Shown piece after piece: positions 44,183 to 58,977 of a stretch of 64,000 nucleotides of DNA (position 1 is the first letter of the stretch; the number at the start of each line of letters is the position of its first letter). This DNA is from Geothrix paludis (lineage in GTDB: Bacteria > Acidobacteriota > Holophagae > Holophagales > Holophagaceae). The notes below the pieces were generated by a model. That model worked only from the letters and a program-made list of their open reading frames with translations. It ran no database searches and was not told the origin of the DNA. The position numbers and the translations under genes are program-made. The stretch spans positions 396,536 through 460,535 of the forward strand of contig NZ_JAKZLC010000004.1 of the NCBI RefSeq assembly GCF_022808815.1, written 5' to 3'.

Positions 44183-45469
44183 ATGCCCACGCCCGCCCGT
44201 CTCCACGTCGCCCACGCCCTCCACGAAGTCTTCGGGGAGAAGGGCCGGGTGCCGGACATCTGGGACCGGGACCTGGGCGAGGACGCGCACCTGGCCCAGG
44301 CCCTGCTCGGCCTCTGCCTGCGCCGCTGGGGCCGCCTCCAGGCCTGGGTGAAGCCCCAGCTGAAGGAGCCCGCCCGGGGCGTGCCCCTGGGCACCCAGGT
44401 GGCCCTGGCCATGGGCCTCGCGCAGCTGGCCTGGCTGCCCGGCGTCAGCGATCACGCGGCGGTGAACGAATCCGTGGCGTTGGCGGGGGACCGTGACCTG
44501 GGCTTCCATCCCCACAAGGGCCTGGTGAACGCCCTGCTGCGCCGGGCGGCGAAGGACCGTGCCGCCCTGGCCGCGGCGCTGGACGCCCTGCCCTCCTCCC
44601 TGGACCGGCCTCCCGCCGCGGAGCGCGCCCTGAGGGCCGCCCTGGCGCCCCACGGGGCCCTGGACCAAGTCGAGGCCCTGTGGTCCCGTCTCCAGCAGCC
44701 CCCCCGCCCCGCCTTCCGCCTCGTGCGGGGCGAGGTTCCCGAAGGCCTGGCGCCAGACCCGGAATGGCCGGGCTGCCTGCGGCTGGAAGAGGGGGCCCCC
44801 TTCCCGCGGCCCTGGCTGGAATCCGGGGCGGGCATGGTGCAGGACCGCAGCTCCCAGGCCCTGCTGGCCTACGGCTGGGATCGCCCCGTGACGCGGATCC
44901 TGGACGCCTGCGCCGCCCCGGGCGGCAAGACCACCACCCTGGCCCTGCGCCACCCCGGGGCCGCGCTCACGGCCCTGGAAGTGCACCCCCGGCGCGCGGC
45001 CCGGCTGCGGCAGACCCTCCAGCAGCGGGGCGTGACGGCCCAGGTGATCCAGGCGGACGCGGCGGAGTGGCTGGAGGCCAGCGACGCCACCTTCGACCTC
45101 ATCCTGCTCGATGCCCCCTGCTCGGGCAGTGGCACCCTCCAGAAGCACCCCGAGTGGCCCTGGCTGGCCCATGACGACCTGCCCCGCCTCACCGGGATCC
45201 AGCGCCGCCTCCTGGCCGCCGCCGCCGGGCGTCTGGCCCCGGGCGGGCTGCTGATCCATGCGGTCTGCTCCTGGCTGCCCGAGGAGGGCGTCGCCCACCG
45301 GGACTGGCTGGCGGAGGCCCGCTCCGACCTTCGCCCGGCAGAGGTCTGGCCGGCGGCCCTGGGCGTGGCCGATGGATCGGGGCGCGAGGTCACGGACCTG
45401 TTCCGCCCCCACCCCCTCCGCTGGGAGGGCGAGGGTTTCCAGGCCTTCGCCGTCCAGCGCTCGAGCTAG
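44183..45469 (+). CDS. rsmB: 16S rRNA m5C967 methyltransferase RsmB
   Basis: A 428-residue enzyme. An N-terminal NusB-like domain (to about residue 140) precedes the SAM-binding core with DACAAPGGKTT. Motif IV LLDAPCSGSGT supplies one catalytic cysteine and HAVCSWLPEEG the other. Both cysteines are present, as needed for m5C transfer. The ATG at 44183 gives the family start; the longer upstream frame is not used. It is usually linked to fmt and def, which are absent here. Confidence 0.92.
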   Translation: MPTPARLHVAHALHEVFGEKGRVPDIWDRDLGEDAHLAQALLGLCLRRWGRLQAWVKPQLKEPARGVPLGTQVALAMGLAQLAWLPGVSDHAAVNESVALAGDRDLGFHPHKGLVNALLRRAAKDRAALAAALDALPSSLDRPPAAERALRAALAPHGALDQVEALWSRLQQPPRPAFRLVRGEVPEGLAPDPEWPGCLRLEEGAPFPRPWLESGAGMVQDRSSQALLAYGWDRPVTRILDACAAPGGKTTTLALRHPGAALTALEVHPRRAARLRQTLQQRGVTAQVIQADAAEWLEASDATFDLILLDAPCSGSGTLQKHPEWPWLAHDDLPRLTGIQRRLLAAAAGRLAPGGLLIHAVCSWLPEEGVAHRDWLAEARSDLRPAEVWPAALGVADGSGREVTDLFRPHPLRWEGEGFQAFAVQRSS

Positions 45470-45497: not shown

Positions 45498-45713
45498 CTA
45501 CTGGCGGGCTTTCGAGACCAGCGACCGCAGCACCCAGCCGAGGTACGAGAACACATTCCCCCGGCGACGGTCCCGCCGTCTGGGATCGGGCGGGAGGACC
45601 GGGAGGTCCTCCAGGCGTCGCTCGGAGCGCCGCCGCTCCTCTTTCTGGACCAAGTGGATCGCGAGGGCGAAGAAGAGAACCACGGCGACGGCGGTGTAGG
45701 CGAAGACCTTCAT
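45498..45713 (-). CDS. Small membrane-anchored basic protein
   Basis: A 71-residue protein with an N-terminal transmembrane helix (FAYTAVAVVLFFALAIHLV) and an Arg-rich cytoplasmic tail (RRRSERR, RRRDRRR). A GGGGGAA Shine-Dalgarno-like stretch precedes the ATG. No family is recognised. It converges with rsmB and is the last backbone-like gene before the integron region. Confidence 0.55.
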   Translation of the reverse strand: MKVFAYTAVAVVLFFALAIHLVQKEERRRSERRLEDLPVLPPDPRRRDRRRGNVFSYLGWVLRSLVSKARQ

Positions 45714-45969
45714 GGGTTCCCCCGGGGGAGGTCGGGTGGCGAGGGCAGGCCAGGCCGAATGGGGTCAGGACAGGGCCCGACGGGGAGGCGGCGCCCCCGG
45801 CGCAGGGTCCAGAATCGGAGCGCGGGGACGGCGGCCTTCGGGCCGAATCCCACGCCCAAGGCCAGGGGAACCGCCGGATGGGAGAGGAGGGTCGGCATCC
45901 GAAGGATCTAGCGACACGGGCCGCCGGACCCCGGAGCGGGCCAGGGGGAACAGGGGGCTGGGCCGGACC
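45714..45969. other. GC-rich spacer at the distal end of the integron region
   Basis: This 256-bp stretch between the small membrane gene and the repeat-protein gene has no convincing reading frame. It may contain the remains of an attC site (a GAATGGGGTCAGGAC word near 45756 weakly resembles the attC left arm), but the match is too poor to call. Confidence 0.3.
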
Positions 45970-46248
45970 TCACCTGATGGCATACCAGGGGGAGGTCCCG
46001 GCGCCATCCGGGTTGCCCTGGTCGGGGTACAGCTTGCCCTTCTCGATCCTGAACCAGGGTGCGGTTCCGGCCCCATCGGGGTGGCCAACATCGGGGTACA
46101 CCTTGTCGCCGCGAACGGAGAACCAGGGCCTCGTTCCCACGCCCTCGGGATGGCCGACATCGGGGTAGAGCTTCCCGTCCCGCAGGGAGAAATAGGGCGA
46201 GGGGTTCATCCCGTAGGGATGCCCCTGGTCAGGGAACAACCTTTCCAT
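45970..46248 (-). CDS. Protein of four 23-residue tandem repeats (probable distal cassette)
   Basis: A 92-residue protein made almost wholly of four repeats. The unit pattern is [LV][FY]PDxG[HN]PxGxxxxP[WY][FY]x[LVI]R, for example LYPDVGHPEGVGTRPWFSVR. The regular aromatic/Pro/Gly content suggests a small all-beta fold. There is no signal peptide and no cysteine. It starts 21 bp from a decayed attC site (46270) in the same way as genes of intact cassettes, so it is probably the most distal gene of the array. Its own attC is no longer recognisable. Confidence 0.65.
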   Translation of the reverse strand: MERLFPDQGHPYGMNPSPYFSLRDGKLYPDVGHPEGVGTRPWFSVRGDKVYPDVGHPDGAGTAPWFRIEKGKLYPDQGNPDGAGTSPWYAIR

Positions 46249-46269
46249 GTCGAGCCTCCAGATGCTGTG

Positions 46270-46456
46270 GCCCTACGATGGGAGGTAATCGGACCGTCCG
46301 CAACCACTTGGTGGGTGGAACGGAGCCTCAAGCCGCATCAGGCGACCTGAACATCGGTTTGATGGGGCCACGGAGGGTGGCAAGCCGGGAGGACGGAACG
46401 GCGCCGGAGGGCGCGGGCCGGCGCGGCCGGAGCCCAGGTTGAGCGGAGGGTCAGGT
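46270..46456 (-). repeat. Decayed attC (cupin cassette)
   Basis: The left end GCCCTAC (46270-46276) and the following 30 bases align with the intact attC left arm. The right end reads TTGAGCGGAGGGTCAGGT (core GTCAGGT at 46450-46456). The interior is enlarged and altered, giving 187 bp, so it is probably inactive. Confidence 0.65.
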
Positions 46457-46795
46457 CTGCCGGACGATATCGACCGAGATCTCCACCGCCTGGATCGTTC
46501 CCCTGTTCTCCAGCCAGTGGGTCGTGTTCCGATCCTCCGGCCAGCCCACGCCCGGCCCATAGTCCGTGGCGACGCCGTTCCGATGGTCGGTGATCGTTCC
46601 CTGCAGGATGTAGACGGTGCCGGGTCGGTCCTTGTGATCGTGGATCGGCCCGAAGACCCCTCCGGGCTCGAGGGTCACCATGCGCATTCGAAGCTGGCGC
46701 CCCGCCATGCCCTCGATCTCGGGGCCGAGGTCGACCGAGGCGAGGTGTTTCACCGTGACGCCCTTCGTTTCGGGAGCCGTCTGTTCGTGATCCAT
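46451..46795 (-). CDS. Cupin-domain protein (cassette gene)
   Basis: A 114-residue single-domain cupin. The first cupin motif is recognisable around PGGVFGPIHDHKDRPGTVYILQG, cited here as its core HDHKDRPGTVYILQG. The second motif around GWPEDRNTTHWLENRG retains one histidine. Metal-dependent activity is possible; the substrate is unknown. The stop TGA lies in the core of the decayed attC at exactly the place where intact sites give TAA, a one-base change. It starts 26 bp from the next decayed attC, so it is an old cassette. Confidence 0.75.
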   Translation of the reverse strand: MDHEQTAPETKGVTVKHLASVDLGPEIEGMAGRQLRMRMVTLEPGGVFGPIHDHKDRPGTVYILQGTITDHRNGVATDYGPGVGWPEDRNTTHWLENRGTIQAVEISVDIVRQT

Positions 46796-46821
46796 CGTGT
46801 CCCCCTTTCTGTCATGACAGG

Positions 46822-46917
46822 ATCTGACGGATGAAGGTAACCGGACACGCTTGCATGGGGGCGACGAGCGGAAGCTTCGGCCGGCTGGATGGATGTTCCG
46901 TGCTTTTCCACCTAGGC
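46822..46917 (-). repeat. Decayed attC (GNAT cassette)
   Basis: Core ATCTGAC and the next 45 bases follow the intact attC left arm (for example GATGAAGGTAACCGGACACG). The right arm is lost except for CCTAGGC at 46911-46917. At 96 bp it is shorter than intact sites and probably inactive. Confidence 0.65.
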
Positions 46918-46926
46918 AGCGCGTGG

Positions 46927-47388
46927 CTATAGCAGCTTTCGATAGACGATAAAACCGGACCTCTCGGCCAGGCTGTCATAGAGCTTCATCGCCGCGGTGT
47001 TGGTTTCCTGGGTCTGCCAATACACGCGCTTGATTCCCGCACCCCGGGCAAATTCGTACACAGCCTGGATGAGCGCACGGCCCACGCCTTTGCCTCGTGA
47101 GGCTTCGACGGTAAACAGGTCTTGAAGGTAGCAGTTTGGAACAATCTGAATGGTGCTTCGATGAAGGAGGAAATGAACCAGGCCAAGCAATTCGCCAGAG
47201 TGTTCTGCGACCAATGCATGCATGGGTTCATAGGGGTCGAAGAACCGCGACCAGGTCATCCGGGTAATGTCTGGCGGTAACGCCGTGTGCCCTGCTCGGC
47301 CATAGAAGGCGTTGTATCCATCCCAGAGTGCCAACCAGGCATCGAAATCACCCTTCTCAACAGCTCTCACCCGAATGGGATCGGTCAA
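46927..47388 (-). CDS. GNAT family N-acetyltransferase (cassette gene)
   Basis: A 153-residue acetyltransferase. The acetyl-CoA loop lies in EASRGKGVGRALIQAVYEFA (Q/RxxGxG/A motif RGKGVG). The C-terminal YWQTQETNTAAMKLYDSLAE pattern is typical of the family. The substrate is unknown; amino acids, polyamines or small amines are usual. The start is a TTG at 47388 (TTG ACC GAT). Flanking decayed attC sites show that it is one of the oldest cassettes. GNAT genes are frequent integron cargo. Confidence 0.85.
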   Translation of the reverse strand: MTDPIRVRAVEKGDFDAWLALWDGYNAFYGRAGHTALPPDITRMTWSRFFDPYEPMHALVAEHSGELLGLVHFLLHRSTIQIVPNCYLQDLFTVEASRGKGVGRALIQAVYEFARGAGIKRVYWQTQETNTAAMKLYDSLAERSGFIVYRKLL

Positions 47389-47441
47389 CGGCGCTCCCGT
47401 GATTCAGGAATGCGGCACGCATTCCTACCCATCATGCAGCG

Positions 47442-47538
47442 GCCCTACAAAAGAAGCCAACTAGAGCAGAGAGAGCAAGAAGTTGAGAGAGAGCGGAGGG
47501 CTATGCAGGCGGGGTCCGAGTTGAGCTAGGGGTTAGGC
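47442..47538 (-). repeat. Partly decayed attC (YCII cassette)
   Basis: The right half is intact up to GTTAGGC at 47532-47538. The left arm is shortened by about 27 bp and its core reads GCCCTAC instead of GCCTAAC. At 97 bp it is the first damaged site met when moving leftwards along the array. Confidence 0.85.
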
Positions 47539-47558: not shown

Positions 47559-47900
47559 TTAGGACTGCGGGTCGAACCCGAAGACGCGTAGCTCTTGGTC
47601 ACAGCGGCAAGCCTTGGCGATCCGTGTAGCCCACGCGATGGCCTCTTCGCGCGAGGGTAGCTCGAGCACGGTGAATCCGCCATCGAGCGTGGGCGCCCAC
47701 GGGTAACCGCCCATAGAGATCGTGCCATCGGACGAAACGAGCACTGGCGGCACATCTTCGTCGATGCCACCGCCGAAGATGTAAACGCCAGCGGCCTTCG
47801 CCTCTTCAATCACGGCGTGCGCAGCGCGGCCCACTGCCTCTAGCTCGCCGCTGGGAACGACCATCGCAGCACTGGGGAAGGAGATCAGGTATTTGGCCAT
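47559..47900 (-). CDS. YCII-related (YciI-like) protein (cassette gene)
   Basis: A 113-residue dimeric alpha-beta-barrel-type protein recognised by the KYLISF start, the SDGTISMGGYPWAPTLDGGFTVLEL region (core DGGFTVLEL) and EEAIAWATRIAKA. YCII proteins are related to muconolactone isomerase. The conserved His/Asp pair of YciI is only partly retained. It lies 21 bp from its attC stop side and 45 bp from the next attC. Confidence 0.75.
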   Translation of the reverse strand: MAKYLISFPSAAMVVPSGELEAVGRAAHAVIEEAKAAGVYIFGGGIDEDVPPVLVSSDGTISMGGYPWAPTLDGGFTVLELPSREEAIAWATRIAKACRCDQELRVFGFDPQS

Positions 47901-47945: not shown

Positions 47946-48069
47946 GTCTAACGAATGAAGCTAACCGGCCACGCCTGCACCGAGGCGCTGAGCGGAGCCG
48001 AGGAAGCGGGATGACGAGAAAGAGCGGAGGGCAATGCAGGCGCGGTGCGAGTTGAGCGGTGGGTTAGGC
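47946..48069 (-). repeat. attC site
   Basis: 124 bp, cores GTCTAAC and GTTAGGC. The arm reads GCGCGGTGCGAG where most sites have GCGGGGTCCGAG, so the long stem has mismatches. Confidence 0.92.
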
Positions 48070-48264: not shown

Positions 48265-48388
48265 GCCTAACGAATGTGGCTAACCGGCACCGCCTGCACC
48301 GAGGCGCTGAGCGGAGCCGAGGAAGCGAGACGTTGAGAGAGAGCGGAAGACAATGCAGGCGGGGTCCGAGTTGAGCTAAGGGTTAGGC
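48265..48388 (-). repeat. attC site
   Basis: 124 bp, cores GCCTAAC and GTTAGGC. It provides the TAA stop of the TspO gene. Confidence 0.94.
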
Positions 48389-48880
48389 GAGGATGTGGGG
48401 ATTGCTTTTCCATACTGCCCAGGTGAGAACGGAAGCGAATGACACCCAGGCTAAATAGGGGATAAGCAAAGCACCCGCAAAACGATTTCGGTGCCAGAAC
48501 ATAAATGCGGTGGCGATGATCAACAGCCACAAAAATAGGATCTCGGCGAAGGCCAGGGCGCCGAGATGGCAAACAAAGAACAACCAAGTCCACAGGGCAT
48601 TTACGGCTAGTTGGAAAACGAATAGAGCGAGCTCGGGACCGGCCTTTCGAAGGCCGTATTCTCGCCATACAAGCCAGGCTGAAATGGCCATCAAGATGTA
48701 GAGAACAGTCCAAACCGGACCGAAGAGCCATCCGGGTGGTGCCCATAGTGGGCGAATGAGCACCTTGTAGAAAGATCCAGCTTGTGCGGAGGCGAGGGCG
48801 CCAAGTGCTGCGGCTGCGAAGCAAATAGAGAGCCATCCAAAGAAGCCTAGAATTTGCTTCGGCATTGGATATTTGGTCAT
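48383..48880 (-). CDS. tspO: TspO/MBR family protein (cassette gene)
   Basis: A 165-residue membrane protein with five predicted helices. Family patterns WAPPGWLFGPVWTVLYILM and ALWTWLFFVCHLG are intact. TspO proteins bind tetrapyrroles such as protoporphyrin and cholesterol-like ligands, and act in stress and porphyrin handling. Its TAA stop lies inside the adjacent attC. It is one of the few well-known families in the array. Confidence 0.9.
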   Translation of the reverse strand: MTKYPMPKQILGFFGWLSICFAAAALGALASAQAGSFYKVLIRPLWAPPGWLFGPVWTVLYILMAISAWLVWREYGLRKAGPELALFVFQLAVNALWTWLFFVCHLGALAFAEILFLWLLIIATAFMFWHRNRFAGALLIPYLAWVSFASVLTWAVWKSNPHILA

Positions 48881-48898
48881 TAAAGCCCCGAGAGAACG

Positions 48899-49021
48899 CC
48901 TAACGAATGAAGCTAACCGGACCCGCCTGCACCGAGGCGCTGAACGAAGCCGAGGAAGCGAAACGATGAGAGAGAACGGAAGACAATGCAGGCGGGGTCC
49001 GAGTTGAGCTAAAGGTTAGGC
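48899..49021 (-). repeat. attC site
   Basis: 123 bp, cores GCCTAAC and GTTAGGC, with perfectly paired GGACCCGCCTGCA arm apart from one bulge. Confidence 0.94.
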
Positions 49022-49037
49022 ACATCGGGAATCCTGA

Positions 49038-49235
49038 TTAGTTTTTGCCTTCGGATTCACAGTTCATCAATACGGCCTTGCCATCCACCTTGCCAATCAG
49101 ACTGATGCATTTGTGAGTTTCGCCGCCATCGAGGGAAATCCGAACCTCTAGATCCTGGTTCTCAAAGCTGGCCAGCTCCTTGATGAGGGCACGAACGGTC
49201 TTGCCGCGAATAATCCATTCCGGGGTTGGGTTCAT
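49038..49235 (-). CDS. Small hypothetical protein (cassette gene)
   Basis: A 65-residue soluble protein with the pattern TVRALIKELASFENQDLEV followed by RISLDGGETHKCISLIGK. Similar short proteins (xLIxELxxFxxxxxVxxSxDGG) are frequent among cassettes and plasmids; no function is known. The start is 6 bp from attC, whose AGG would act as Shine-Dalgarno. Confidence 0.7.
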   Translation of the reverse strand: MNPTPEWIIRGKTVRALIKELASFENQDLEVRISLDGGETHKCISLIGKVDGKAVLMNCESEGKN

Positions 49236-49241
49236 GGATGC

Positions 49242-49366
49242 GCCTAACGAAGGAAGCTAACCGGGCCCCGCCTGCACCGAGGCACTGAGCGGAGCCGAGG
49301 AAGCGAGAAGCTGAGAGAGAGCGGAAGGCAATGCAGGCGGGGTCCGAGTTGAGCGGAGGGTTAGGC
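49242..49366 (-). repeat. attC site
   Basis: 125 bp, cores GCCTAAC and GTTAGGC; left arm GGAAGCTAACCGGGCCCCGCC has one extra base. Confidence 0.94.
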
Positions 49367-49376
49367 GCGAGAATAA

Positions 49377-49856
49377 TTATAGGATTTCATAAGGGGTCAT
49401 CCACGGGAGGAGTGTGTTTGTTTTTCTTGTGAATAATTGAAACATGTCCACTTTGCGCTCACTTGTGCTGTTCGATCGTGGGAAAGTTTCGATCGGAATC
49501 TTTTCTCTTGGAACAAGGAATAACCTTACGTCCTCAGGATAGACAGCGATAAAACATATATGTGTATATGGATCACTCGGACGAATTGCCATCCAGGCAA
49601 AAATTTTTTTATCATTCGTAATTGATAGAGTTGCCATTTTCACTTCAATTTTTTTATCTTCAAACTCCAGATCGTAACCAAACCTTGAGTTGGGCAGCAG
49701 TTTGCCACCGATGACTTTTTGAGCGAGTTGTTCGCCCACTTTCCCAGCGCCAGCCCTTGGTAATTTTCGCAGCCATTCGTTGGGCTTTCCTGCCCAAAGA
49801 TCGTCCGAATTCTTAATAAATAAAGCTGAAAGCAAGTTCTGAGCTCGAGTAGACAT
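49377..49856 (-). CDS. PD-(D/E)XK-type nuclease-like protein (cassette gene)
   Basis: A 159-residue protein from the ATG at 49856 (a TTG at 49868 is possible). The segment around residues 38-74 has the restriction-endonuclease-like core: GKVGEQLA with E42, then GYDLEF with D62, then KIEVK with E71 and K73. The strand-hairpin-strand spacing agrees with type II restriction and Mrr-like enzymes. No methyltransferase accompanies it, so it may act on modified or foreign DNA, or be inactive. Codon use is clearly AT-richer than the backbone. Confidence 0.6.
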   Translation of the reverse strand: MSTRAQNLLSALFIKNSDDLWAGKPNEWLRKLPRAGAGKVGEQLAQKVIGGKLLPNSRFGYDLEFEDKKIEVKMATLSITNDKKIFAWMAIRPSDPYTHICFIAVYPEDVRLFLVPREKIPIETFPRSNSTSERKVDMFQLFTRKTNTLLPWMTPYEIL

Positions 49857-49906
49857 TTGTTTTCTCAAAATGAAAGAAGGTGGCTTTTACTCTTGGCTGA
49901 GGTAGC

Positions 49907-50030
49907 GCCTAACGAATGAAGCTAACCGGACCCGCCTGCACCGAGGCGCTGAGCGGAGTCGAGGAAGCGAGATGTTGAGAGAGAGCGGCGGGCAATGCAG
50001 GCGGGGTCCGAGTTGAGCGGAGGGTTAGGT
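49907..50030 (-). repeat. attC site
   Basis: 124 bp, cores GCCTAAC and GTTAGGT (T as final pyrimidine). Confidence 0.94.
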
Positions 50031-50041
50031 TGCCCTCGATT

Positions 50042-50590
50042 TTAGAGCGCCTTTTCATACGCCTTGATGGCGAAATCGAGAATTTGTCTCTTGTCTGGGT
50101 CAGAAAAATGTCTTTTCCGTCCGTTCTGACCAGATTGATCTAAATAGCCCATCTTGATGAGCATATTGCAAAGCTCTTCGTTATGCCTGCCAGCGCTCCA
50201 CTTCTTGAGGAAAGGGTAATCCTGTGATGTGATCCCGGGCCCGCTCAAGAACAAACGCATTGTGTTCTCCCAATTTGGATAGGATCGCATTTGCTCCCAG
50301 ACAAAAGGGCCTTTCTCGGTCATTGATAGGGTTAATTCAAGGACGATTCTGAATTTATCTTGGTCAGACAATTCAGAGTCTTTTGCGGCCTGCCACGCCA
50401 ACTTGATTCTTTCTGCATCCGAACTTAACTGATCGCGCCTAGCATATACGCCGTTGACCACTCCACTTCGAGGCTGCGTGGTTGTTGATCCCCAAAATGT
50501 GGTGAGTGGAAAAGTGAACATCAGGCAGAACCTTGCAAACCTTCGGGGAGCCCGGGTTTGCTTGAATCTTGGTGGGATGGATGATGGCAC
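50042..50590 (-). CDS. Hypothetical protein (cassette gene)
   Basis: A 182-residue protein from the GTG at 50590, which leaves the same 5-bp gap to attC as many neighbours. The N-terminus has a basic stretch and a hydrophobic segment (FCLMFTFPLTTFWG) that could be a membrane anchor. The rest is soluble and helical, with SDAERIKLAWQAAKDSE and a C-terminal half rich in charged residues. No family is recognised. Confidence 0.6.
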   Translation of the reverse strand: MPSSIPPRFKQTRAPRRFARFCLMFTFPLTTFWGSTTTQPRSGVVNGVYARRDQLSSDAERIKLAWQAAKDSELSDQDKFRIVLELTLSMTEKGPFVWEQMRSYPNWENTMRLFLSGPGITSQDYPFLKKWSAGRHNEELCNMLIKMGYLDQSGQNGRKRHFSDPDKRQILDFAIKAYEKAL

Positions 50591-50595
50591 GAGCA

Positions 50596-50719
50596 ACCTA
50601 ACGGATGGAGCTAACCGGCCCCGCCTGCACCGAGGCGCTGAGCGAAGCCGAGAAAGCGAGATGAAGAGAAGGAGCGGAAGACAATGCAGGCGGGGTCCGA
50701 GTTGAGCTGAAGGTTAGGC
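50596..50719 (-). repeat. attC site
   Basis: 124 bp, cores ACCTAAC and GTTAGGC. Confidence 0.94.
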
Positions 50720-50735
50720 CGACCGAGATTAATTA

Positions 50736-51092
50736 CTAAGTGAGGGACAAAATTATACAGAAGATTGTAATAAAGACCGGAAGTTGAAGAAGAAATGAGA
50801 TTCTAAGCTTCTTTTGAAGCGCAATTCCTTCTGGGATTCGATGAAGCCAAGTTGGCGTGGTGAAAACGAGCTTAAGTCCGAATACCGTATACGCGATGTT
50901 ACCCCCGAGGGATTTGCCTTCAGGTGGCTCCCAGAGAAATGCAACGTGGGGCTTGCCTTCATTGGACCAGAGATCCTTGTCGATAGCATAAAGCGCTGGA
51001 ATTAGTTTCCCGAGAGCGCGATATGTTGGCATCCCTACGACCACCCATATAGGAATGAGCAGCAAGAGTGCGATGATTTGCACAATTTTCAT
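50736..51092 (-). CDS. Hypothetical membrane protein (cassette gene)
   Basis: A 118-residue protein with an N-terminal helix (IVQIIALLLLIPIWVVVG), a central extramembrane part (residues 25-85) and a C-terminal helix (ISFLLQLPVFITIFCIIL). Both ends are therefore in the membrane. Its start is 5 bp from attC. No family is recognised. Confidence 0.65.
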   Translation of the reverse strand: MKIVQIIALLLLIPIWVVVGMPTYRALGKLIPALYAIDKDLWSNEGKPHVAFLWEPPEGKSLGGNIAYTVFGLKLVFTTPTWLHRIPEGIALQKKLRISFLLQLPVFITIFCIILSLT

Positions 51093-51097
51093 CGGCG

Positions 51098-51221
51098 GCC
51101 TAACGAATGAAGCTAACCGGACCCGCCTGCACCGAGGCGCTGAACGGAGCCGAGGAAGCGAGACGAAGAGAAAGAGAGGAAGGCAATGCAGGCGGGGTCC
51201 GAGTTGAGCGCAAGGTTAGGC
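51098..51221 (-). repeat. attC site
   Basis: 124 bp, cores GCCTAAC and GTTAGGC. Confidence 0.94.
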
Positions 51222-51278
51222 CGCAGCATGGGTATAATTTGTTGATATAGGAAACGGATTGGAGATGATTGCTTATTT

Positions 51279-51665
51279 TTACTGTTTATCTGTAAATGCA
51301 ATAAGTGTGGCTCGATAATCATTTCCCTGGTCGGGATTTCCCTTTAAGTCATGGTCGTTAACGATCCGGGTATCTAGCACAATTAGACCATCTGCGCCTG
51401 CGCGAGCAGCGGCAATTCGAAATTTACCGAAAATCGTTCCCTCATCTGGGCGGTAGCTCCAATCAAGGTACTGGACCATCCCGATCTCTTTGTACGGTCT
51501 AGTTGGTTTTCTGCTGATGTAGATTTCGACTTCATCGGGGTTTTTCTGCATTAGATTCGCCTGGCCAAACATGGAAGTTCTGACGCCTCTTGTCTGGTCT
51601 GCTTCGGGGCTAGAGCAACCAATCGCTACAAAAAAGAGGAGAGTGATAAGAAGTAAAAATTTCAT
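51279..51665 (-). CDS. Lipoprotein (second gene of a two-gene cassette)
   Basis: A 128-residue protein from the ATG at 51665, with a GGGAG Shine-Dalgarno. The signal peptide MKFLLLITLLFFVAIGC ends in lipobox AIGC at residue 17. The mature part has RPYKEIGMVQYLDWSYRPDEG and AAARAGADGLIVLDTRI, a pattern seen in YbjQ/DUF4156-like small lipoproteins (KEIG...A...GADGL). The frame is open upstream as far as 51797, but the lipobox fixes this start. No attC separates it from the gene at 51794. Confidence 0.75.
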   Translation of the reverse strand: MKFLLLITLLFFVAIGCSSPEADQTRGVRTSMFGQANLMQKNPDEVEIYISRKPTRPYKEIGMVQYLDWSYRPDEGTIFGKFRIAAARAGADGLIVLDTRIVNDHDLKGNPDQGNDYRATLIAFTDKQ

Positions 51666-51793
51666 GATGCTCCCTTTATTTGATTTGAGGTTGATATAGT
51701 AAAGGTGCTTTCTAGCAAGTGTGTCAGTAGAATAAGAAAGAGTGTATGGAATAATGGCTGTCTGGCCATGGTTTGGCTTAGGGTTATGGGTTG

Positions 51794-52006
51794 TCAAAAG
51801 GCATTGGGACCGATCAAGTGTTTACAAATGCCGGGTACCCATTGCCAGGGATCTCCTGGGCACCGGTCCCAAGTCAGGCGCGGATTGTCCGTCTTTGCCT
51901 TCATGAACCAAAAGAAGAGTTTATTGTTATCCCAGGTGCGCCGTTCCGCAATTGGAACGCGCATTAATTCTGTTCTTACAGCCTGTTCGAATTCCGATTT
52001 GTTCAT
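51794..52006 (-). CDS. Small hypothetical protein (first gene of a two-gene cassette)
   Basis: A 70-residue soluble protein, opening MNKSEFEQAVRTELMRVPIAE, with several tryptophans in the second half (RLTWDRCPGDPWQW). Its start is 15 bp from attC. A 128-bp non-coding gap separates it from the downstream lipoprotein gene. It was perhaps a cassette of its own whose attC has been deleted. Confidence 0.6.
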   Translation of the reverse strand: MNKSEFEQAVRTELMRVPIAERRTWDNNKLFFWFMKAKTDNPRLTWDRCPGDPWQWVPGICKHLIGPNAF

Positions 52007-52021
52007 GGGACGTCTCCGAAG

Positions 52022-52145
52022 GCCTAACGAATGAAGCTAACCGGCCCCGCCTGCACCGAGGCGCTGAACGAAGCCGAGGAAGCGAAATGCTGAGAGAGAG
52101 CGGAAGGCAATGCAGGCGGGGTCCGGGTTGAGCGGAGGGTTAGGC
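52022..52145 (-). repeat. attC site
   Basis: 124 bp, cores GCCTAAC and GTTAGGC; right arm reads GTCCGGGTTGAGC. Confidence 0.94.
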
Positions 52146-52159
52146 GCCCTGGTGGAGGC

Positions 52160-52684
52160 CTACTTGGCTTTAGGTATGGCGATGATTTTTGCCTTCGGTT
52201 GCCCATCTATTTCAGTGCCAACGAGAATGTTTGGTTTGCCGTCCTGGGTAAGCCCGTTCTGTCGGGCGTACAACACAATTCGACCGTCATCGAAGGTGGT
52301 TGTCAGAGCGTGAAATCTCACAGAGCTGGAACGAACCACCTGATTCGCCGAATCGTAAATGGTGTAAGTAGCTGGAAGGCCGAGGAGGACGCGAAGGCCT
52401 GGAGCCTCTAGTGGAGCGGCTTTAAGCGGAATATCGAGGGTAAGCCCCTCCGACTGGCCCGAAAGCAGAACGACCTCATGGGTACTGACAGACTCACCAA
52501 GAATCCGTTCTTTCAGGTCATCCGATTTGCCCATCTTTTCGGGAATGCCCAGGACAGTGGCTCCGATCTTGAATTCAATCCGATACCCGGGAGGCAGCCC
52601 CTGGTCCTTGACCTTAATGCGAACAGCCTGAGCCGCGAGAGAACTCGAAACGGCAAGAAGGACGACCGGGATGAGTATGTGCAT
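52160..52684 (-). CDS. Secreted hypothetical protein (cassette gene)
   Basis: A 174-residue protein with a signal peptide of about 19 residues (ending SLAAQA). The mature part is predicted beta-rich, with alternating hydrophobics such as VRIKVKDQGLPPGYRIEFKI. No cysteines and no catalytic motif are seen. It starts 62 bp from attC, the longest leader in the array, and has an AAGGGG Shine-Dalgarno. Confidence 0.65.
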   Translation of the reverse strand: MHILIPVVLLAVSSSLAAQAVRIKVKDQGLPPGYRIEFKIGATVLGIPEKMGKSDDLKERILGESVSTHEVVLLSGQSEGLTLDIPLKAAPLEAPGLRVLLGLPATYTIYDSANQVVRSSSVRFHALTTTFDDGRIVLYARQNGLTQDGKPNILVGTEIDGQPKAKIIAIPKAK

Positions 52685-52746
52685 TACAGTGCCCCTTTCT
52701 GGTCGGTTTTGATGAATGTTGGCTGCTGCGATTCCTAGTCGATGAC

Positions 52747-52870
52747 GCCTAACGAATGAAGCTAACCGGACCCGCCTGCACCGAGGCGCTGGACGGAGCC
52801 GAGGAAGCGAGAAGCTGAGAGAGAGCGGAAAGCAATGCAGGCGGGGTCCGAGTTGAGCTAAGGGTTAGGC
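52747..52870 (-). repeat. attC site
   Basis: 124 bp, cores GCCTAAC and GTTAGGC. Confidence 0.94.
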
Positions 52871-52876
52871 CGATCA

Positions 52877-53107
52877 CTAGCCTTGCTGGTGTTGGAGAAC
52901 CAACCTTAATGCCGCCAAGTAGTCCTGGGAGGCAGCGGGATCTGTAGTAGACCCATTTGGACTCGAACCAGCGTAGGTGTGAAGGAAATCAGAAACGGGG
53001 CTATCGCCGCGAGAGAGGTATGACTGAACAAACAATTCCATGATTCGGTAGGAATCGCGGAGCGAAACCACCTGGTCGAATTCTGGGGATTGAAGTGAGG
53101 TGTTCAC
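52877..53107 (-). CDS. Small hypothetical protein (cassette gene)
   Basis: A 76-residue soluble protein starting at GTG (53107), 5 bp from attC. A helical first half (VVSLRDSYRIMELFVQSYL) and a Ser/Pro/Gly-rich middle lead to a helical end (SQDYLAALRLVLQHQQ). No family is recognised. Confidence 0.6.
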   Translation of the reverse strand: MNTSLQSPEFDQVVSLRDSYRIMELFVQSYLSRGDSPVSDFLHTYAGSSPNGSTTDPAASQDYLAALRLVLQHQQG

Positions 53108-53112
53108 GAGAG

Positions 53113-53236
53113 GCCTAACGAATGAAGCTAACCGGACCCGCCTGCACCGAGGCGCTGAGCGGAGCCGAGAAAGCGAGAAGCTGAAAGAGAGGGGAAGGCA
53201 ATGCAGGCGGGGTCCGAGTTGAGCGGAGGGTTAGGC
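53113..53236 (-). repeat. attC site
   Basis: 124 bp, cores GCCTAAC and GTTAGGC. Confidence 0.94.
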
Positions 53237-53282
53237 TGACGGGGCGGGTTCTTGAATGATGGACGCCTTAAGTTAATACCCC

Positions 53283-53756
53283 CTACGTGAAATCACACCA
53301 CAACTCTATTGAATTGACCTTGCCGTTCTCGACATGAAAGACAAGGGCGGTTTCAGACGTGAGGCTGCGGTAGATCAATTCGGTCTGGTTGTCTTTGCTA
53401 AGAATTTCGGGATGGCCGTAGAGTGCGATCACCTGGCTGGATTTCATACCTACCCGAGCCCCGGCCGGAGTTGCGTATTTTCGGATGGTACAAACGAGAT
53501 TCACCAAACTTTTATCGCAAAAGTAAGTTCTGATTCCTTTGTACTTCAGCTCGATTTCGGAGTTGCAGAACATTGGATCTGCGGTTGAATTTTTTCGAAT
53601 TGGCCGACCAAACCGATGAGTTACCTCTTTCTGGGATGAACCAATCTGAACTGAGGCCAGACGGATTTGACTGTCCGCCAGGCGTACGGGCTCGGTTTGT
53701 TGGGCCATGGCAGGCGCCATGAGTAGGATTGCCAACAATGCACTCAGGCTGTTCAC
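53283..53756 (-). CDS. Secreted protein with two BamE/SmpA-like repeats (cassette gene)
   Basis: A 157-residue protein starting at GTG (53756), with a signal peptide ending PAMAQ. Two related units follow: VQIGSSQKEVTHRFGRPIRK at about residue 36 and ARVGMKSSQVIALYGHPEIL at about 100. Both match the helix-turn of the SmpA/OmlA (BamE) fold, GMsxxeVxxxlGxP. The second unit ends with VFHVENGKVNSIELW. Probably periplasmic; no lipobox is present. Confidence 0.65.
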   Translation of the reverse strand: MNSLSALLAILLMAPAMAQQTEPVRLADSQIRLASVQIGSSQKEVTHRFGRPIRKNSTADPMFCNSEIELKYKGIRTYFCDKSLVNLVCTIRKYATPAGARVGMKSSQVIALYGHPEILSKDNQTELIYRSLTSETALVFHVENGKVNSIELWCDFT

Positions 53757-53762
53757 GAGGAA

Positions 53763-53886
53763 GCCTAACGAATGAAGCTAACCGGACCCGCCTGCGCCGA
53801 GGCGCTGAGCGGAGCCGAGGAAGCGGGAAGTTGAGAGAGAGCGGAAGGCAATGCAGGCGGGGTCCGAGTTGAGCTGAAGGTTAGGC
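53763..53886 (-). repeat. attC site
   Basis: 124 bp, cores GCCTAAC and GTTAGGC; it gives the TAA of the next gene. Confidence 0.94.
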
Positions 53887-54063
53887 CGAAACGTTGGCTT
53901 GTTTCTTTTGCTTTAGCGAGAATATGGCCCAGGATAAAAGAAAAGCGATGAAGCCGACAAAGCAAGCTCGGAGCCAATCGATCCGATGGGGCGAATGAGC
54001 AGCGAAGGTGTAAATGGCCGTTCCAATGAATACGCCGAACCCTGTGCCGAGAGCGGATTTCAT
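53881..54063 (-). CDS. Small two-helix membrane protein (cassette gene)
   Basis: A 60-residue protein with helices at about 5-22 (LGTGFGVFIGTAIYTFAA) and 30-49 (WLRACFVGFIAFLLSWAIF) and a basic end (KQKKQ). The stop lies inside attC. Size and topology resemble the 59-residue product at 48064, but sequence similarity is not obvious. Confidence 0.65.
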   Translation of the reverse strand: MKSALGTGFGVFIGTAIYTFAAHSPHRIDWLRACFVGFIAFLLSWAIFSLKQKKQANVSA

Positions 54064-54079
54064 AGCGTTCTCCTACGAG

Positions 54080-54203
54080 GCCTAACGGATGGAGCTAACC
54101 GGCCCCGCCTGCACCGAGGCGCTGAGCGGAGCCGAGGAAGCGGAACGATGAGAGAGAGCGGAAGGCAATGCAGGCGGGGTCCGAGTTGAGCTAAGGGTTA
54201 GGC
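54080..54203 (-). repeat. attC site
   Basis: 124 bp, cores GCCTAAC and GTTAGGC; it gives the TAA of the 101-residue gene. Confidence 0.94.
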
Positions 54204-54503
54204 CTTGAGGTGCCTACAGTTGATCACATTCTCTTCTTTAAATTGAACGTTATGTTGATTGGGTGTCAGCCCATTGAATGCAATGCAGACGGGGTCGAAC
54301 CCGATAATCGTTCCCTCAAAAGTGGCGGTGTCGATAATGTTTTCGACTCGAATTTGAATCCAAGTGGAATTACAACGAAGATCGACTTGGTCACCAATAA
54401 CAATGCGTCTTTCTGGGGAAGTCTTAGCTAAGAAATTGATAGGAAGACCTGGTGGACGGAGATCGAATGAGTAGACGATTGAATCTTTACTTTCTCGAAG
54501 CAT
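54198..54503 (-). CDS. Hypothetical protein (second gene of a two-gene cassette)
   Basis: A 101-residue soluble protein with alternating hydrophobics (RRIVIGDQVDLRC, TWIQIRVENI), probably beta-rich. It begins 29 bp after the membrane-anchored gene at 54533 with no attC between them, so both travel as one cassette and may work together. Its stop is inside attC. Base composition is AT-rich. Confidence 0.65.
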   Translation of the reverse strand: MLRESKDSIVYSFDLRPPGLPINFLAKTSPERRIVIGDQVDLRCNSTWIQIRVENIIDTATFEGTIIGFDPVCIAFNGLTPNQHNVQFKEENVINCRHLKA

Positions 54504-54532
54504 CGGAACTCCTAATAAATAATGGCAATAGC

Positions 54533-54997
54533 TTAAATCGAATCCTCGGGTGAAATCGAAATCACCGCGATGGGAATGCCATTCTTTGATTCATAGTTAT
54601 AATTTAGTTTCACCTTATTTTCTTTGAAGAATTTCATCTGAGGTGAATTTTGATAGGCGTTGATCAATTTGGGGCGATATTCATTCACGAAACCATTGTT
54701 ATCAATTTGTTTCGAATCAAAATTAATAACAATATTATATACAAATATGTCGTTTGGGCCTACTTCAGTCGAAACCAATTTAAACGCAGGGTCATCGCCA
54801 ACTATCGGGCATTTTCTATTGGTATCGAGACTCGCTTTTTGAAGCATCTCATGTAGGGATGCTTTAGAAGTCTCAGTATGAGGCGACTTGGGTAATACGA
54901 ATTCCTTGAAGAACGCACTCAGTCCGACAACAATTGCGGCAAAAAATATCCATGCGTAATTCTTCTTGTTTGATTGTGAAGGATTTTCCAGCGCCAT
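54533..54997 (-). CDS. Membrane-anchored hypothetical protein (first gene of a two-gene cassette)
   Basis: A 154-residue protein from the ATG at 54997 (AAGGAG Shine-Dalgarno). One N-terminal transmembrane helix (AWIFFAAIVVGLSAFF) is followed by a soluble domain of about 110 residues with no known motif. The frame is open back through the whole upstream attC to 55159, but that part is attC sequence and not a gene. The low GC contrasts with the backbone. Confidence 0.65.
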   Translation of the reverse strand: MALENPSQSNKKNYAWIFFAAIVVGLSAFFKEFVLPKSPHTETSKASLHEMLQKASLDTNRKCPIVGDDPAFKLVSTEVGPNDIFVYNIVINFDSKQIDNNGFVNEYRPKLINAYQNSPQMKFFKENKVKLNYNYESKNGIPIAVISISPEDSI

Positions 54998-55017
54998 GTG
55001 GGTTCTCCTTAAGTGAG

Positions 55018-55142
55018 GCCTAACGAAGAAAGCTAACCGGGCCCCGCTTGCGCCGAGGCGCTGAGCGGAGCCGAGATAGCGAAATGCTGAGAGAGAGCGG
55101 AAGGCAATGCAGGCGGGGTCCGAGTTGAGCGCAGGGTTAGGC
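55018..55142 (-). repeat. attC site
   Basis: 125 bp, cores GCCTAAC and GTTAGGC; the left arm has GGGCCCCGCTTGCG, which weakens the long stem. Confidence 0.93.
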
Positions 55143-55778
55143 CTTGTCTCGCTTTTCAATCGCGTTTCTTTGGCCCTCAGGTATGACTGAGCTATACATG
55201 GCTTCGATCTGCTTGGGTTGAGATATCAATGCATCGGTGATGATGTTGACGAGCCCAAACAGTTGAGTTGCAGTGGTGACATCGTCTTTCAAGTCCAACT
55301 GGCCAGGATGCACCGCGTTGTTGCCAACCACACGGACTATATCAAGAGCCTGTTGAATCTTGATCGGTAATCCAAGTTGGACGAGTGTGGCAATGTCGTC
55401 ATTGATGTTCTTACCCGGCTGTTTCAGATGTACACAAAGCTTTTGAATGCACAGGCGAAGTAGAGCGGAGGCTCCTCTTGGAGAGTTTTGCAAAATGGCA
55501 CGAGCTTCTTCAAAGTCGGCGGCGATCTCTTCGGGAAGATCGACATTTGGTGTTGGTGCGAGGTTGGCCTGTGGGAATTTGAGCTCCCCTTCTACCCAAA
55601 ACGACCACTTTCCACACCTATTGCATCGACACATCCAATACAAATCTGATGGACCATACTGATTTTGACCGGCAACGAGATAGGGCTTTCCCCAATGTTG
55701 AGTTGAGAACGCATGGCAGAACGGGCAATTAAACCCATCAAGGAGATACGTCGGAGGTGTGTATGGCACTTGGTGCAT
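55137..55778 (-). CDS. DUF4145-like protein with zinc ribbon (cassette gene)
   Basis: A 213-residue protein. CPFC (residues 18-21) and CRCNRC (50-55) form an N-terminal zinc ribbon. The C-terminal helical region (from ADFEEARAILQNSPRGASAL) with VRVVGNNAVHPG matches DUF4145, a family often found in restriction or defence contexts. No nuclease domain is attached, so the function is open. Stop inside attC. Confidence 0.75.
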   Translation of the reverse strand: MHQVPYTPPTYLLDGFNCPFCHAFSTQHWGKPYLVAGQNQYGPSDLYWMCRCNRCGKWSFWVEGELKFPQANLAPTPNVDLPEEIAADFEEARAILQNSPRGASALLRLCIQKLCVHLKQPGKNINDDIATLVQLGLPIKIQQALDIVRVVGNNAVHPGQLDLKDDVTTATQLFGLVNIITDALISQPKQIEAMYSSVIPEGQRNAIEKRDKA

Positions 55779-55792
55779 GTGGTACCTCGGAG

Positions 55793-55916
55793 GCCTAACG
55801 AATGAAGCTAACCGGACCCGCCTGCACCGAGGCGCTGAACGAAGCCGAGGAAGCGAAATGCTGAGAGAGAGCGGAAGGCAATGCAGGCGGGGTCCGAGTT
55901 GAGCGGAGGGTTAGGC
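55793..55916 (-). repeat. attC site
   Basis: 124 bp, cores GCCTAAC and GTTAGGC. Confidence 0.94.
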
Positions 55917-55932
55917 AACTTGGGCCACAATG

Positions 55933-56265
55933 CTATTTCATTTGAATACCGCGAAGCCGGTCGGCACGAGCCACCAATTTCCCTGATGGAGAGCGGAATT
56001 CTAAACTTCGAGCTTGGCCTGTTACGCAGGCATCAGCGTTTGCATACGTGGTGACGATCCCTTCCGTTTGCCGGTCGGACCAGGAGAAGTAGTCCTGTCC
56101 AAGGGTGACTACTACCCACCCGTCTTCTACTGCGACACTGGCGACGATATACGGGCGCATTTTGGCCAAGGCCTTTTTCGCAGCAGTCTTATCGCAAGCG
56201 TGAGCTTGGGTGGCCGTGAAAGTGGCGAGAACAACAACAAGAAGAAATCTGGTCAATCGCGCCAT
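55933..56265 (-). CDS. Secreted hypothetical protein (cassette gene)
   Basis: A 110-residue protein with a signal peptide ending THAHA-like (TQAHA, cleavage before C24). The mature part has two cysteines (ACDKTA and DACVTG) that could form a disulfide. The pattern VEDGWVVVTLGQDYFSWSD suggests a small alpha/beta fold. No family is recognised. Confidence 0.6.
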   Translation of the reverse strand: MARLTRFLLVVVLATFTATQAHACDKTAAKKALAKMRPYIVASVAVEDGWVVVTLGQDYFSWSDRQTEGIVTTYANADACVTGQARSLEFRSPSGKLVARADRLRGIQMK

Positions 56266-56292
56266 GACTACTCCTGTTTGGTTGATGAAGTT

Positions 56293-56416
56293 GCCTAACG
56301 AATGAAGCTAAGCGGCCGCGCCTGCACCGAGACGATGAGCGGAGCCGAGATAGCGAAATGTTGAGAGAGAGCGGGAGGCAATGCAGGCGGGGTCCGACTT
56401 GAGCGGAGGGTTAGGC
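56293..56416 (-). repeat. attC site
   Basis: 124 bp, cores GCCTAAC and GTTAGGC; GCTAAGCGG replaces GCTAACCGG and GACTTGAGC replaces GAGTTGAGC. Confidence 0.93.
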
Positions 56417-56815
56417 CCTACCGAGCAGGGCCAAGAGATTTGGTGGGTTGAATTGACGATGATTATTGTAAGGCTCAAGGCCGCCACTGCGCGCTGAATG
56501 GGCCTGGATTGCTGCGGAATCTCCGCCGGCCAGTGTTGGGCCAAGTCGATTTATTTCGCCTTGATGCCAATCGTGAAGGATATCGCCCATGTCGCGCTGG
56601 AACAGTTCTACGAAATCACTTTCGAAGAACGGCCACCGAACTGTGTAAGGAAAGGAGGCATAGGGTTCATGAGCGGCTACTACCCAGAGTTGGGAGCAAG
56701 TCTGGCAAATATCTAAACCGATAAAATTGCCACCCAACCCGGTTGAAGCGAATTTTGGCCCTCTGCCTGGTGGCCAAAGCTCGCGATTGGGTGCTTGGCA
56801 GATCTGACAGCTCAT
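56411..56815 (-). CDS. Hypothetical zinc-ribbon protein (cassette gene)
   Basis: A 134-residue protein with C3-x2-C6 and C37-x2-C40, a rubredoxin-type zinc site. The rest is soluble, with a Trp/Phe-rich stretch (FPYTVRWPFFESDFVELF). No family is recognised. Start 6 bp from one attC, stop inside the other, so it fills its cassette completely. Confidence 0.65.
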   Translation of the reverse strand: MSCQICQAPNRELWPPGRGPKFASTGLGGNFIGLDICQTCSQLWVVAAHEPYASFPYTVRWPFFESDFVELFQRDMGDILHDWHQGEINRLGPTLAGGDSAAIQAHSARSGGLEPYNNHRQFNPPNLLALLGRA

Positions 56816-56821
56816 GGGTGG

Positions 56822-56945
56822 GCCTAACGAATGAAGCTAACCGGACCCGCCTGCACCGAGGCGACGAGCGGAGCCGAGAAAGCGAGGAGTTGAGAGAGAG
56901 CGCAAGACAATGCAGGCGGGGTCCGAGTTGAGCGGAGGGTTAGGC
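56822..56945 (-). repeat. attC site
   Basis: 124 bp, cores GCCTAAC and GTTAGGC. Confidence 0.94.
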
Positions 56946-57206
56946 GTGTGACGAAAAGATGAAATGCTTGAGTAAATAGATTATTGCCGGGAGCCATAGG
57001 AAGAGGGAGATAAGGCAAAAGCCCAAACCCGCATAAATAGCTTCACTTCCACGATGGGTTACTAGTGGTGCACCTCTGCTAGGCCTTAGACGGATCTCTC
57101 GTTTGATAATTGCCTTCATACCGACTGCGAACAAAGTGATTCCAACCGCGCAACCGAGAAGCGCAAAACCGGGTGTAGGTGGGCTGGTGCTTGGAGTGTA
57201 GAGCAT
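56940..57206 (-). CDS. Hypothetical two-helix membrane protein (cassette gene)
   Basis: An 88-residue protein with helices around residues 13-32 (FALLGCAVGITLFAVGM) and 60-82 (LGFCLISLFLWLPAIIYLL), joined by a basic loop. Start 3 bp from attC and stop inside the next attC, so the entire cassette is coding plus attC. Confidence 0.65.
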   Translation of the reverse strand: MLYTPSTSPPTPGFALLGCAVGITLFAVGMKAIIKREIRLRPSRGAPLVTHRGSEAIYAGLGFCLISLFLWLPAIIYLLKHFIFSSHA

Positions 57207-57209
57207 GAC

Positions 57210-57333
57210 GCCTAACGAATGAAGCTAAGCGGCCCCGCCTGCACCGAGGCGATGAGCGGAGCCGAGATAGCGAAATGCTGAGAGAGAGCGGAAGGCAATG
57301 CGGGCGGGGTCCGGGTTGAGCGGAAGGTTAGGC
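57210..57333 (-). repeat. attC site
   Basis: 124 bp, cores GCCTAAC and GTTAGGC; GCTAAGCGG left box variant. Confidence 0.93.
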
Positions 57334-57364
57334 AGGCCACAGGACCCCGATGGGAGTAGAAGGG

Positions 57365-57601
57365 TTAATGAGCAAAGTTGACAAGTAAAGCTAAGGCATA
57401 CCCAGCAAAGTAAAGAGAGGCCGGTGTTCGATAACAGCTATCCCAACCAGCCCGGTACCAGATATAGAGACCGAGCAATGGAAATGGAACAAGGAGAAGG
57501 AGGAGAGCCCATAGGAGATCTTCTCTCTGCCAAATTTCGTAGGCATACCAGAGACCGCCGATGACGACGAGAATGACTGCGATGATGGCAACGATGTTCA
57601 T
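57365..57601 (-). CDS. Hypothetical membrane protein (cassette gene)
   Basis: A 78-residue protein with three hydrophobic stretches: 3-20 (IVAIIAVILVVIGGLWYA), 29-48 (LLWALLLLLVPFPLLGLYIW) and 62-76. Start 5 bp from attC. No family is recognised. Confidence 0.65.
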   Translation of the reverse strand: MNIVAIIAVILVVIGGLWYAYEIWQREDLLWALLLLLVPFPLLGLYIWYRAGWDSCYRTPASLYFAGYALALLVNFAH

Positions 57602-57606
57602 TGGCT

Positions 57607-57730
57607 GCCTAACGAATGAAGCTAACCGGACCCGCCTGCGCCGAGGCGCTGAGCGAAGCCGAGGAAGCGAGAAGCTGAGAGAGAGCGGAAGACAATGCAG
57701 GCGGGGTCCGAGTTGAGCTAAGGGTTAGGC
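57607..57730 (-). repeat. attC site
   Basis: 124 bp, cores GCCTAAC and GTTAGGC. Confidence 0.94.
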
Positions 57731-57742
57731 CGCCTGTTGGAA

Positions 57743-57922
57743 TCACAAGTTTCCTTGGTAACGAGCCGCTTCACGCCAACTGGCGAGAGCCTGGCTTTCG
57801 CTGCGCCCTTTGGTTTCGATGCGACGCCCATCGTAGTCGCCGATGGCAATCCAGACTGTTTTTGACTTCTGATGAACAGATACTTCGTAGGAGTGATCCC
57901 AAACTCGGACTGTGTGCTGCAT
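57743..57922 (-). CDS. Small soluble protein (cassette gene)
   Basis: A 59-residue protein with a perfect AGGAGG Shine-Dalgarno 6 bp before the ATG. It opens MQHTVRVWDHSYEVSVHQKS, continues with a VWIAIGDYDGRRIETKGRS hairpin and ends in a helix (SQALASWREAARYQG). It looks like a compact beta-beta-alpha fold. It is the only gene of its cassette. No family is recognised. Confidence 0.7.
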   Translation of the reverse strand: MQHTVRVWDHSYEVSVHQKSKTVWIAIGDYDGRRIETKGRSESQALASWREAARYQGNL

Positions 57923-57938
57923 GGATCCTCCTTGGGCG

Positions 57939-58062
57939 ACCTAACGAATGAAGCTAACCGGCCCCGCCTGCACCGAGGCGACGAGCGAAGCCGAGGAAGC
58001 GAGAGGATGAGAGAGAGTGAAAGGCAATGCAGGCGGGGTCCGAGTTGAGCGGAGGGTTAGGT
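57939..58062 (-). repeat. attC site
   Basis: 124 bp, cores ACCTAAC and GTTAGGT; it gives the TAA of the 256-residue gene. Confidence 0.94.
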
Positions 58063-58827: not shown

Positions 58828-58832
58828 GAGCA

Positions 58833-58956: not shown

Positions 58957-58977
58957 ATTCGTGAACCACGTTTACGG

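What the first reader, a model, noticed from the sequence alone, without database searches (positions are those of the whole stretch)
45970..47538. Fossil distal end of the array with graded attC decay
Moving left from 47.9 kb, sites become steadily poorer. The site at 47442 has lost part of its left arm and has core GCCCTAC. The site at 46822 keeps only its left arm. The site at 46270 is enlarged with core GTCAGGT. The cupin gene even retains its stop at the ancestral position, but as TGA instead of TAA. Since new cassettes enter at attI on the right, this is the age gradient expected for an old distal end. Decay may lock the last cassettes in place.
Basis: partly seen in the sequence, partly recalled or inferred. 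Interest (0 to 1): 0.65.

Follow-up and report, generated by a model that had tools for sequence, protein, structure and literature searches.

The report
Decayed old end of an integron array
This is the worn-out far end of a gene-collecting (integron) array in a Geothrix bacterium: new genes enter at the other end, at an entry site that has no recombinase gene beside it, and the oldest genes at this end have lost the sites that let them move.

Summary
The three poor attC sites at 45.97-47.54 kb are real. Their arms match attC where 91.6 kb of flanking DNA gives none. Scores fall 121, 44, 13.5, 9.7 bits (intact sites 139-155), and none folds the attC outer stem. Genus: Geothrix.

The same distal decay occurs in nine of nine long arrays tested, at the distal end only. 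The distal cassettes (cupin; GNAT in one sister) are conserved in sister species while nearly all others differ. Base composition also drifts towards the chromosome's.

Three corrections:
(1) The right-hand attI is not part of a classical integron. The array most likely continues onto contig C6 and ends at an attI-like site next to a peptidase gene, with no integrase. The genome's only intI heads another array (C2+C7).
(2) The 47442 site is a recent break, not slow decay. A 98.8%-identical copy of the same cassette in the intI array has an intact attC.
(3) Here the pattern is an old relic block joined abruptly to a young array; smoother gradients occur in sisters.

Verdict: a genuine fossil distal end, largely expected from integron biology. 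The more interesting point is its setting, several attI-headed arrays per chromosome and one integrase.

The parts
48265..63997 (-). Array body: 27 attC sites of 99-155 bits; the window and contig end inside the array
   Evidence: attC covariance model; contig C4 ends at 460535
47946..48069 (-). attC, 121 bits, first weakened site (no outer stem in the predicted fold)
47559..47900 (-). YCII-related-domain cassette gene (weak, sub-threshold Pfam match)
   Evidence: its cassette is 98.8% identical over 407 bp to a copy in the intI array of the same genome
47423..47538 (-). Chimeric, truncated attC: right part from the YCII cassette attC, left part an old decayed attC arm of the GNAT side (core GCCCTAC at 47442)
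46927..47388 (-). GNAT acetyltransferase gene, shared with sister SG200 at the same place
   Evidence: Pfam PF00583
46822..46926 (-). Relic attC, left arm only; G. terrae has a 90-bit site at the corresponding place
46451..46795 (-). Cupin_2 gene, TGA stop at the ancestral attC stop position; dN/dS 0.04-0.11
46270..46455 (-). Relic, enlarged attC (left core GCCCTAC, right core GTCAGGT), shared with G. terrae
45970..46248 (-). 92-aa four-repeat gene (YPDxGHPxG), between the last attC relic and the chromosome; no attC of its own recognised; conserved in both closest sisters
45710..45898 (-). Remnant of a ydjM-type gene (PF04307), intact in both sisters, with about 410-435 bp missing here; distal chromosomal flank
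44183..45469 (+). rsmB 16S rRNA methyltransferase, distal chromosomal flank; rsmB and the M28 peptidase lie close together in most sister genomes examined

Best explanation
The segment is the oldest, distal end of a cassette array that lies between rsmB and an M28 peptidase gene in Geothrix. The array has no integrase of its own. It is headed, beyond the contig break, by a site homologous to the integrase's attI, and is presumably served in trans by the single intI on contig C2. Cassettes enter at that end and are pushed towards rsmB. At the far end, attC hairpins lose their cores and arms by mutation and small deletions once they no longer recombine, and the genes that remain are kept by purifying selection. 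In this strain a deletion whose breakpoint falls inside attC sequence then joined the old block (92-aa gene, cupin, GNAT) directly to a young cassette (YCII), which produced the broken 47442 site. Shown: decay, polarity, conservation of the distal genes, the attI-like head, and a second intact copy of the YCII cassette. Inferred: trans action of IntI, the C4-C6 join, and age as the cause of decay.
For: Distal-only decay in 9/9 long arrays, with intI or orphan head. Pooled medians by rank from the distal end are 32, 68, 73, 121, 137, 144 and 143 bits over 13 arrays (one undetected SG200 site was entered as 15 bits by hand, and the 46270 site as 9.7 from a partial match). The same cassette can carry an intact attC elsewhere: YCII 152.1 bits in the intI array and 146.5 in G. 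terrae against 43.9 here; cupin 138-140 bits in two G. limicola arrays. SG200 keeps the 92-aa gene, cupin and GNAT but none of the other window cassettes in its rsmB array. GC3 is 0.83 and 0.85 for the 92-aa gene and cupin, about 0.3-0.6 for the array body and 0.93 for rsmB. The orphan attI on C6 aligns to the intI attI with score 81, against a background maximum of 38 in 4000 trials. Synteny pairs C4 with C6 and C2 with C7. Cassettes in this integrase-less array are 97-98% identical to ones in other species whose rsmB proteins are 84-86% identical, so it gained cassettes recently.
Against: The decline in the window is step-like rather than smooth, and one of the three sites is a recent break. 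The array-wide rank correlation for this array alone is weak (rho -0.20, p 0.25), because only the last four sites depart. GC3 is not a clean clock, since some gene families may simply be GC-rich. The C4-C6 join is inferred from sisters. No recombination at the orphan attI has been tested.
Confidence: 0.78

Rival explanations
1. The distal sites are not decayed copies of the array's attC family but divergent attC types captured with their cassettes from other integrons.
For: Several genuine variant attC types occur in these arrays: the 66-nt sites and the 98.8-bit site at 60473.
Against: The distal sites keep array-specific arm sequence (AGGTTGAGCGGAGGGTCAGG, ATCTGACGGATGAAGGTAACCGG), have mutated cores and fold no better than shuffles. 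The YCII cassette shows an intact and a broken version of one site in one genome.
Confidence: 0.08
2. A classical integron: the window array is the distal part of the intI array on C2, split by the assembly at an attC repeat.
For: Both contigs end inside arrays with compatible orientation, and the integrase is real (462 bits).
Against: In the sister genomes with both genes on one contig, rsmB lies near the M28 peptidase found on C6. The distal flank of C7 matches the distal flanks of intI arrays in G002, G007, G015 and G042. In G002 intI is about 570 kb from the rsmB array.
Confidence: 0.07
3. A dead CALIN: integrase lost, and the whole array decaying, with the rsmB end merely further along.
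For: No intI next to the array; CALINs have been proposed to be degraded integrons (PMC9024848).
Against: 28 of 31 sites in the window score 99-155 bits, the far end on C6 is undecayed (142-148 bits), and some cassettes are 97-98% identical to other species'.
Confidence: 0.07

Closest known systems
Sedentary chromosomal integron (e.g. Vibrio superintegron)
   Same: Long array of mostly promoterless cassettes with homogeneous, family-specific attC sites and entry at an attI end
   Different: No integrase beside this array; several attI-like heads per chromosome; a measurable distal attC decay gradient
CALIN (cluster of attC sites lacking an integron-integrase; IntegronFinder, PMC9024848; conserved CALIN loci in Xanthomonas, PMC12444791)
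   Same: attC cluster without adjacent intI at a conserved chromosomal locus
   Different: Headed by an attI-like site with its leader, up to about 36 sites if the C4-C6 join is right, and recent cassette gain; IntegronFinder does not detect attI outside class 1, so such heads would be missed
Delta-attI-type gene cassettes of class 1/2 integrons (PMC12901181)
   Same: A cassette whose 3' site is an attI rather than an attC, like the roughly 214-bp attI-ended segment seen in these arrays
   Different: Here the segment has no evident ORF, is shared by many Geothrix arrays and resembles the leader of some orphan array heads

Membership tests
Integron cassette array | Head-to-tail ORF + attC units in one orientation | tested here: met
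   31 sites on the minus strand with minus-strand ORFs
Integron cassette array | attC bottom strand folds into a stem with paired outer cores | tested here: met
   Met for the intact sites (26 of 27 form outer pairs, mean z -3.4); not met for the sites at 47946, 47423, 46822 and 46268
Complete integron | intI adjacent to attI and the array | tested here: not met
   The only above-cutoff intI in the genome is on C2, heading the C2-C7 array
CALIN | At least two attC sites with no intI nearby | tested here: met
   Window and C6 hold no intI; rests on the C4-C6 join inferred from synteny
attI-headed array | Site homologous to the intI attI at the proximal end, same orientation as the attCs | tested here: met
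   C6:3624-3643; score 81 against background maximum 38
attI-headed array | attI is a substrate for IntI | not testable with these tools
   Needs a recombination assay

The most novel reading that the evidence does not exclude
In Geothrix one chromosomal integrase serves several dispersed, integrase-less arrays, each headed by its own attI. Some of these heads were founded by a mobile ORF-less cassette that carries a promoter and an attI, so the integron multiplies its entry sites in trans. The window's fossil end would be the old end of one such satellite array.
Probability: 0.35. Interest if true: 0.75.

Novelty: new variant of a known kind. Interest (0 to 1): 0.5.

Why it matters
Distal attC decay, reproduced in many arrays and in both array types, gives a relative clock for cassette age and a way to see which captured genes become permanent. 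The same cassette with an intact site in one array and a broken one in another is a natural test of fixation. The orphan attI heads suggest that some CALINs are live satellites of one integrase rather than dead integrons, which could be tested directly.

Tried and rejected
Rfam scan of the window: nothing. A first own-genome search with an unrelated Rfam accession (SAM-I-IV) was a wrong choice and uninformative. I first joined C4 to the intI contig C2 because both end in arrays, and rejected this after the synteny of rsmB with the M28 peptidase and of C7 with intI-array flanks. I considered that the distal sites were variant attC families, and rejected it on the within-genome YCII pair. Smooth-gradient reading of the 47442 site rejected for the same reason. 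No sigma-70-like promoter was found at the C6 head, and one was found in the C2 attI-ended segment, so promoter function is only a suggestion. In the pooled ranking one SG200 site that the model did not detect was entered by hand at 15 bits. Literature searches in the open library found no report of Geothrix integrons or of distal attC decay gradients; subscription papers were not searchable.

Full report
The window is the right end of contig C4 of a draft genome (G000:C4:396536-460535). Its relatives are Geothrix, Holophagaceae, Acidobacteriota: matching contig lengths identify G006 as Geothrix sp. SG200, G018 as G. terrae, G041 as G. campi, G007 as G. oryzisoli, G042 as G. fuzhouensis, G008 as G. 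fermentans, G043 as G. limicola and G001 as G. rubra.

Observation. I aligned 33 attC sites of this genome and built a covariance model. In the window 28 sites score 99-155 bits. Moving left the next ones score 121 (47946-48069, included in the 28), 43.9 (47423-47538), 13.5 (46826-46902) and 9.7 (46270-46316, part of an enlarged site). The last two are at the level of chance for the model, so I tested the arms directly. Left arms at 46270, 46822 and 47442, and right arms at 46436 and 47518, reach thresholds that give no hit in 91.6 kb of flanking strand. Folding of the bottom strand gives -25.1 +/- 2.3 kcal/mol and mean z -3.4 for intact sites. The last four sites give z between +1.1 and -1.2 with no outer stem. 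The TGA of the cupin gene lies exactly where attC supplies TAA.

Is position related to decay? I scored arrays in sister genomes. In nine arrays of 19 or more sites, the three distal sites are lower than the rest (permutation p 0.0002 to 0.036), and the three proximal sites are not (p > 0.36). Pooled over 13 arrays and 245 sites, median bits by rank from the distal end are 32, 68, 73, 121 (ranks 4-5), 137 (6-8), 144 (9-12) and 143. One SG200 value in that table was entered by hand because the model missed the site, and the model was trained on G000, so scores elsewhere run slightly lower. Cassette GC tends to rise towards the distal end (negative rho in 10 of 11 arrays, p < 0.05 in four). In the window GC3 is 0.83 and 0.85 for the 92-aa gene and cupin, 0.64 for GNAT, 0.74 for YCII, about 0.3-0.6 beyond, and 0.93 for rsmB.

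Sister comparison. SG200 is collinear with the window from 45833 to 47444, which covers the 92-aa gene, the 46270 site, cupin, the 46822 site and GNAT. None of the window's other cassettes is in its rsmB array. G. terrae keeps the 92-aa gene, the enlarged 46270 site and cupin, but lacks GNAT and has about 370 bp between the site and cupin. It has a 90-bit site upstream of cupin and keeps a few cassettes in other positions. The distal genes are under purifying selection (dN/dS 0.04-0.21). The cupin gene occurs elsewhere in the genus with an attC of 138-140 bits (two G. limicola arrays) and near the decayed distal ends of arrays in G007, G015, G001 and G045. It is therefore a true cassette.

The 47442 site is different. 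The YCII cassette it belongs to has a copy in the intI array of the same genome, 98.8% identical over 407 bp, with an attC of 152.1 bits. The broken site therefore lost its left half recently. Its left part aligns better with the old decayed arm next to GNAT in SG200, where SnoaL and other cassettes lie between. I read it as a deletion whose breakpoint is inside attC sequence, joining an old block to a young array. An integrase-type excision, which cuts at the core, would have left the YCII attC whole (inference from known integron chemistry).

Which way do cassettes enter? The only above-cutoff intI of the genome is on C2, and its array runs to the end of C2. The array on C7 continues it: C7 decays at its far end, and its distal flank matches the distal flanks of intI arrays in G002, G007, G015 and G042. 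The window array instead pairs with C6. In most sister genomes where both lie in the fetched stretch, rsmB is followed by the M28 peptidase gene that on C6 flanks an array of the right orientation. Between that peptidase and the first cassette lies CGTCCAATTTAAAGTTAGGC, inside about 70 bp homologous to the intI attI (score 81, background maximum 38 of 4000). The same 20-mer with up to two mismatches occurs 47 times in 24 of 47 genomes, against none for the reversed control. All 23 attI-like sites that I inspected are followed by attC in the same orientation, and only six of these have intI beside them. So polarity is explained by an orphan attI-like head, not by a neighbouring integrase. That the integrase acts on it in trans is inferred. 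It fits the cassettes that are 97-98% identical between this array and arrays of other species, and the YCII and TspO cassettes shared at 95-99% between the two arrays of this genome.

Known context. CALINs, sedentary integrons and attI-ended cassettes are described (PMC9024848, PMC12444791, PMC12901181). I found no open-access report of a distal attC decay gradient, nor of attI-headed integrase-less arrays in one genus; absence in this library is weak evidence. The finding itself is what integron biology predicts for an old end. Its value is that it is quantified and replicated here, and that it led to the array's unusual head.

Noticed in passing
L093:3624-3643 (contig C6, minus strand): Orphan attI-like site with leader at the head of the rsmB array, next to an M28 peptidase gene, no integrase; 17 of 23 inspected attI-like array heads in the genus have no intI beside them.
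   Followed up: yes
L023:577-796; also L093:2320-2539: ORF-less segment of about 214 bp ending in a second attI-like site, with a weak promoter-like match; it recurs inside arrays of several Geothrix species and its last 124 bp resemble the leaders of orphan array heads in G002 and G045.
   Followed up: partly
window 45710-45898: Remnant of a ydjM-type gene (PF04307) that is intact in SG200; about 410-435 bp are missing here compared with both sisters.
   Followed up: partly
L148, L149, L184, L190: A short attC type of about 66 nt (44-55 bits with the 124-nt model) recurs many times among ordinary sites in several arrays.
   Followed up: no
window 45970-46248: 92-aa protein of four YPDxGHPxG repeats, no Pfam family, found in 6 of 47 Geothrix genomes; in G046 it lies beyond a row of decayed attC sites.
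   Followed up: partly
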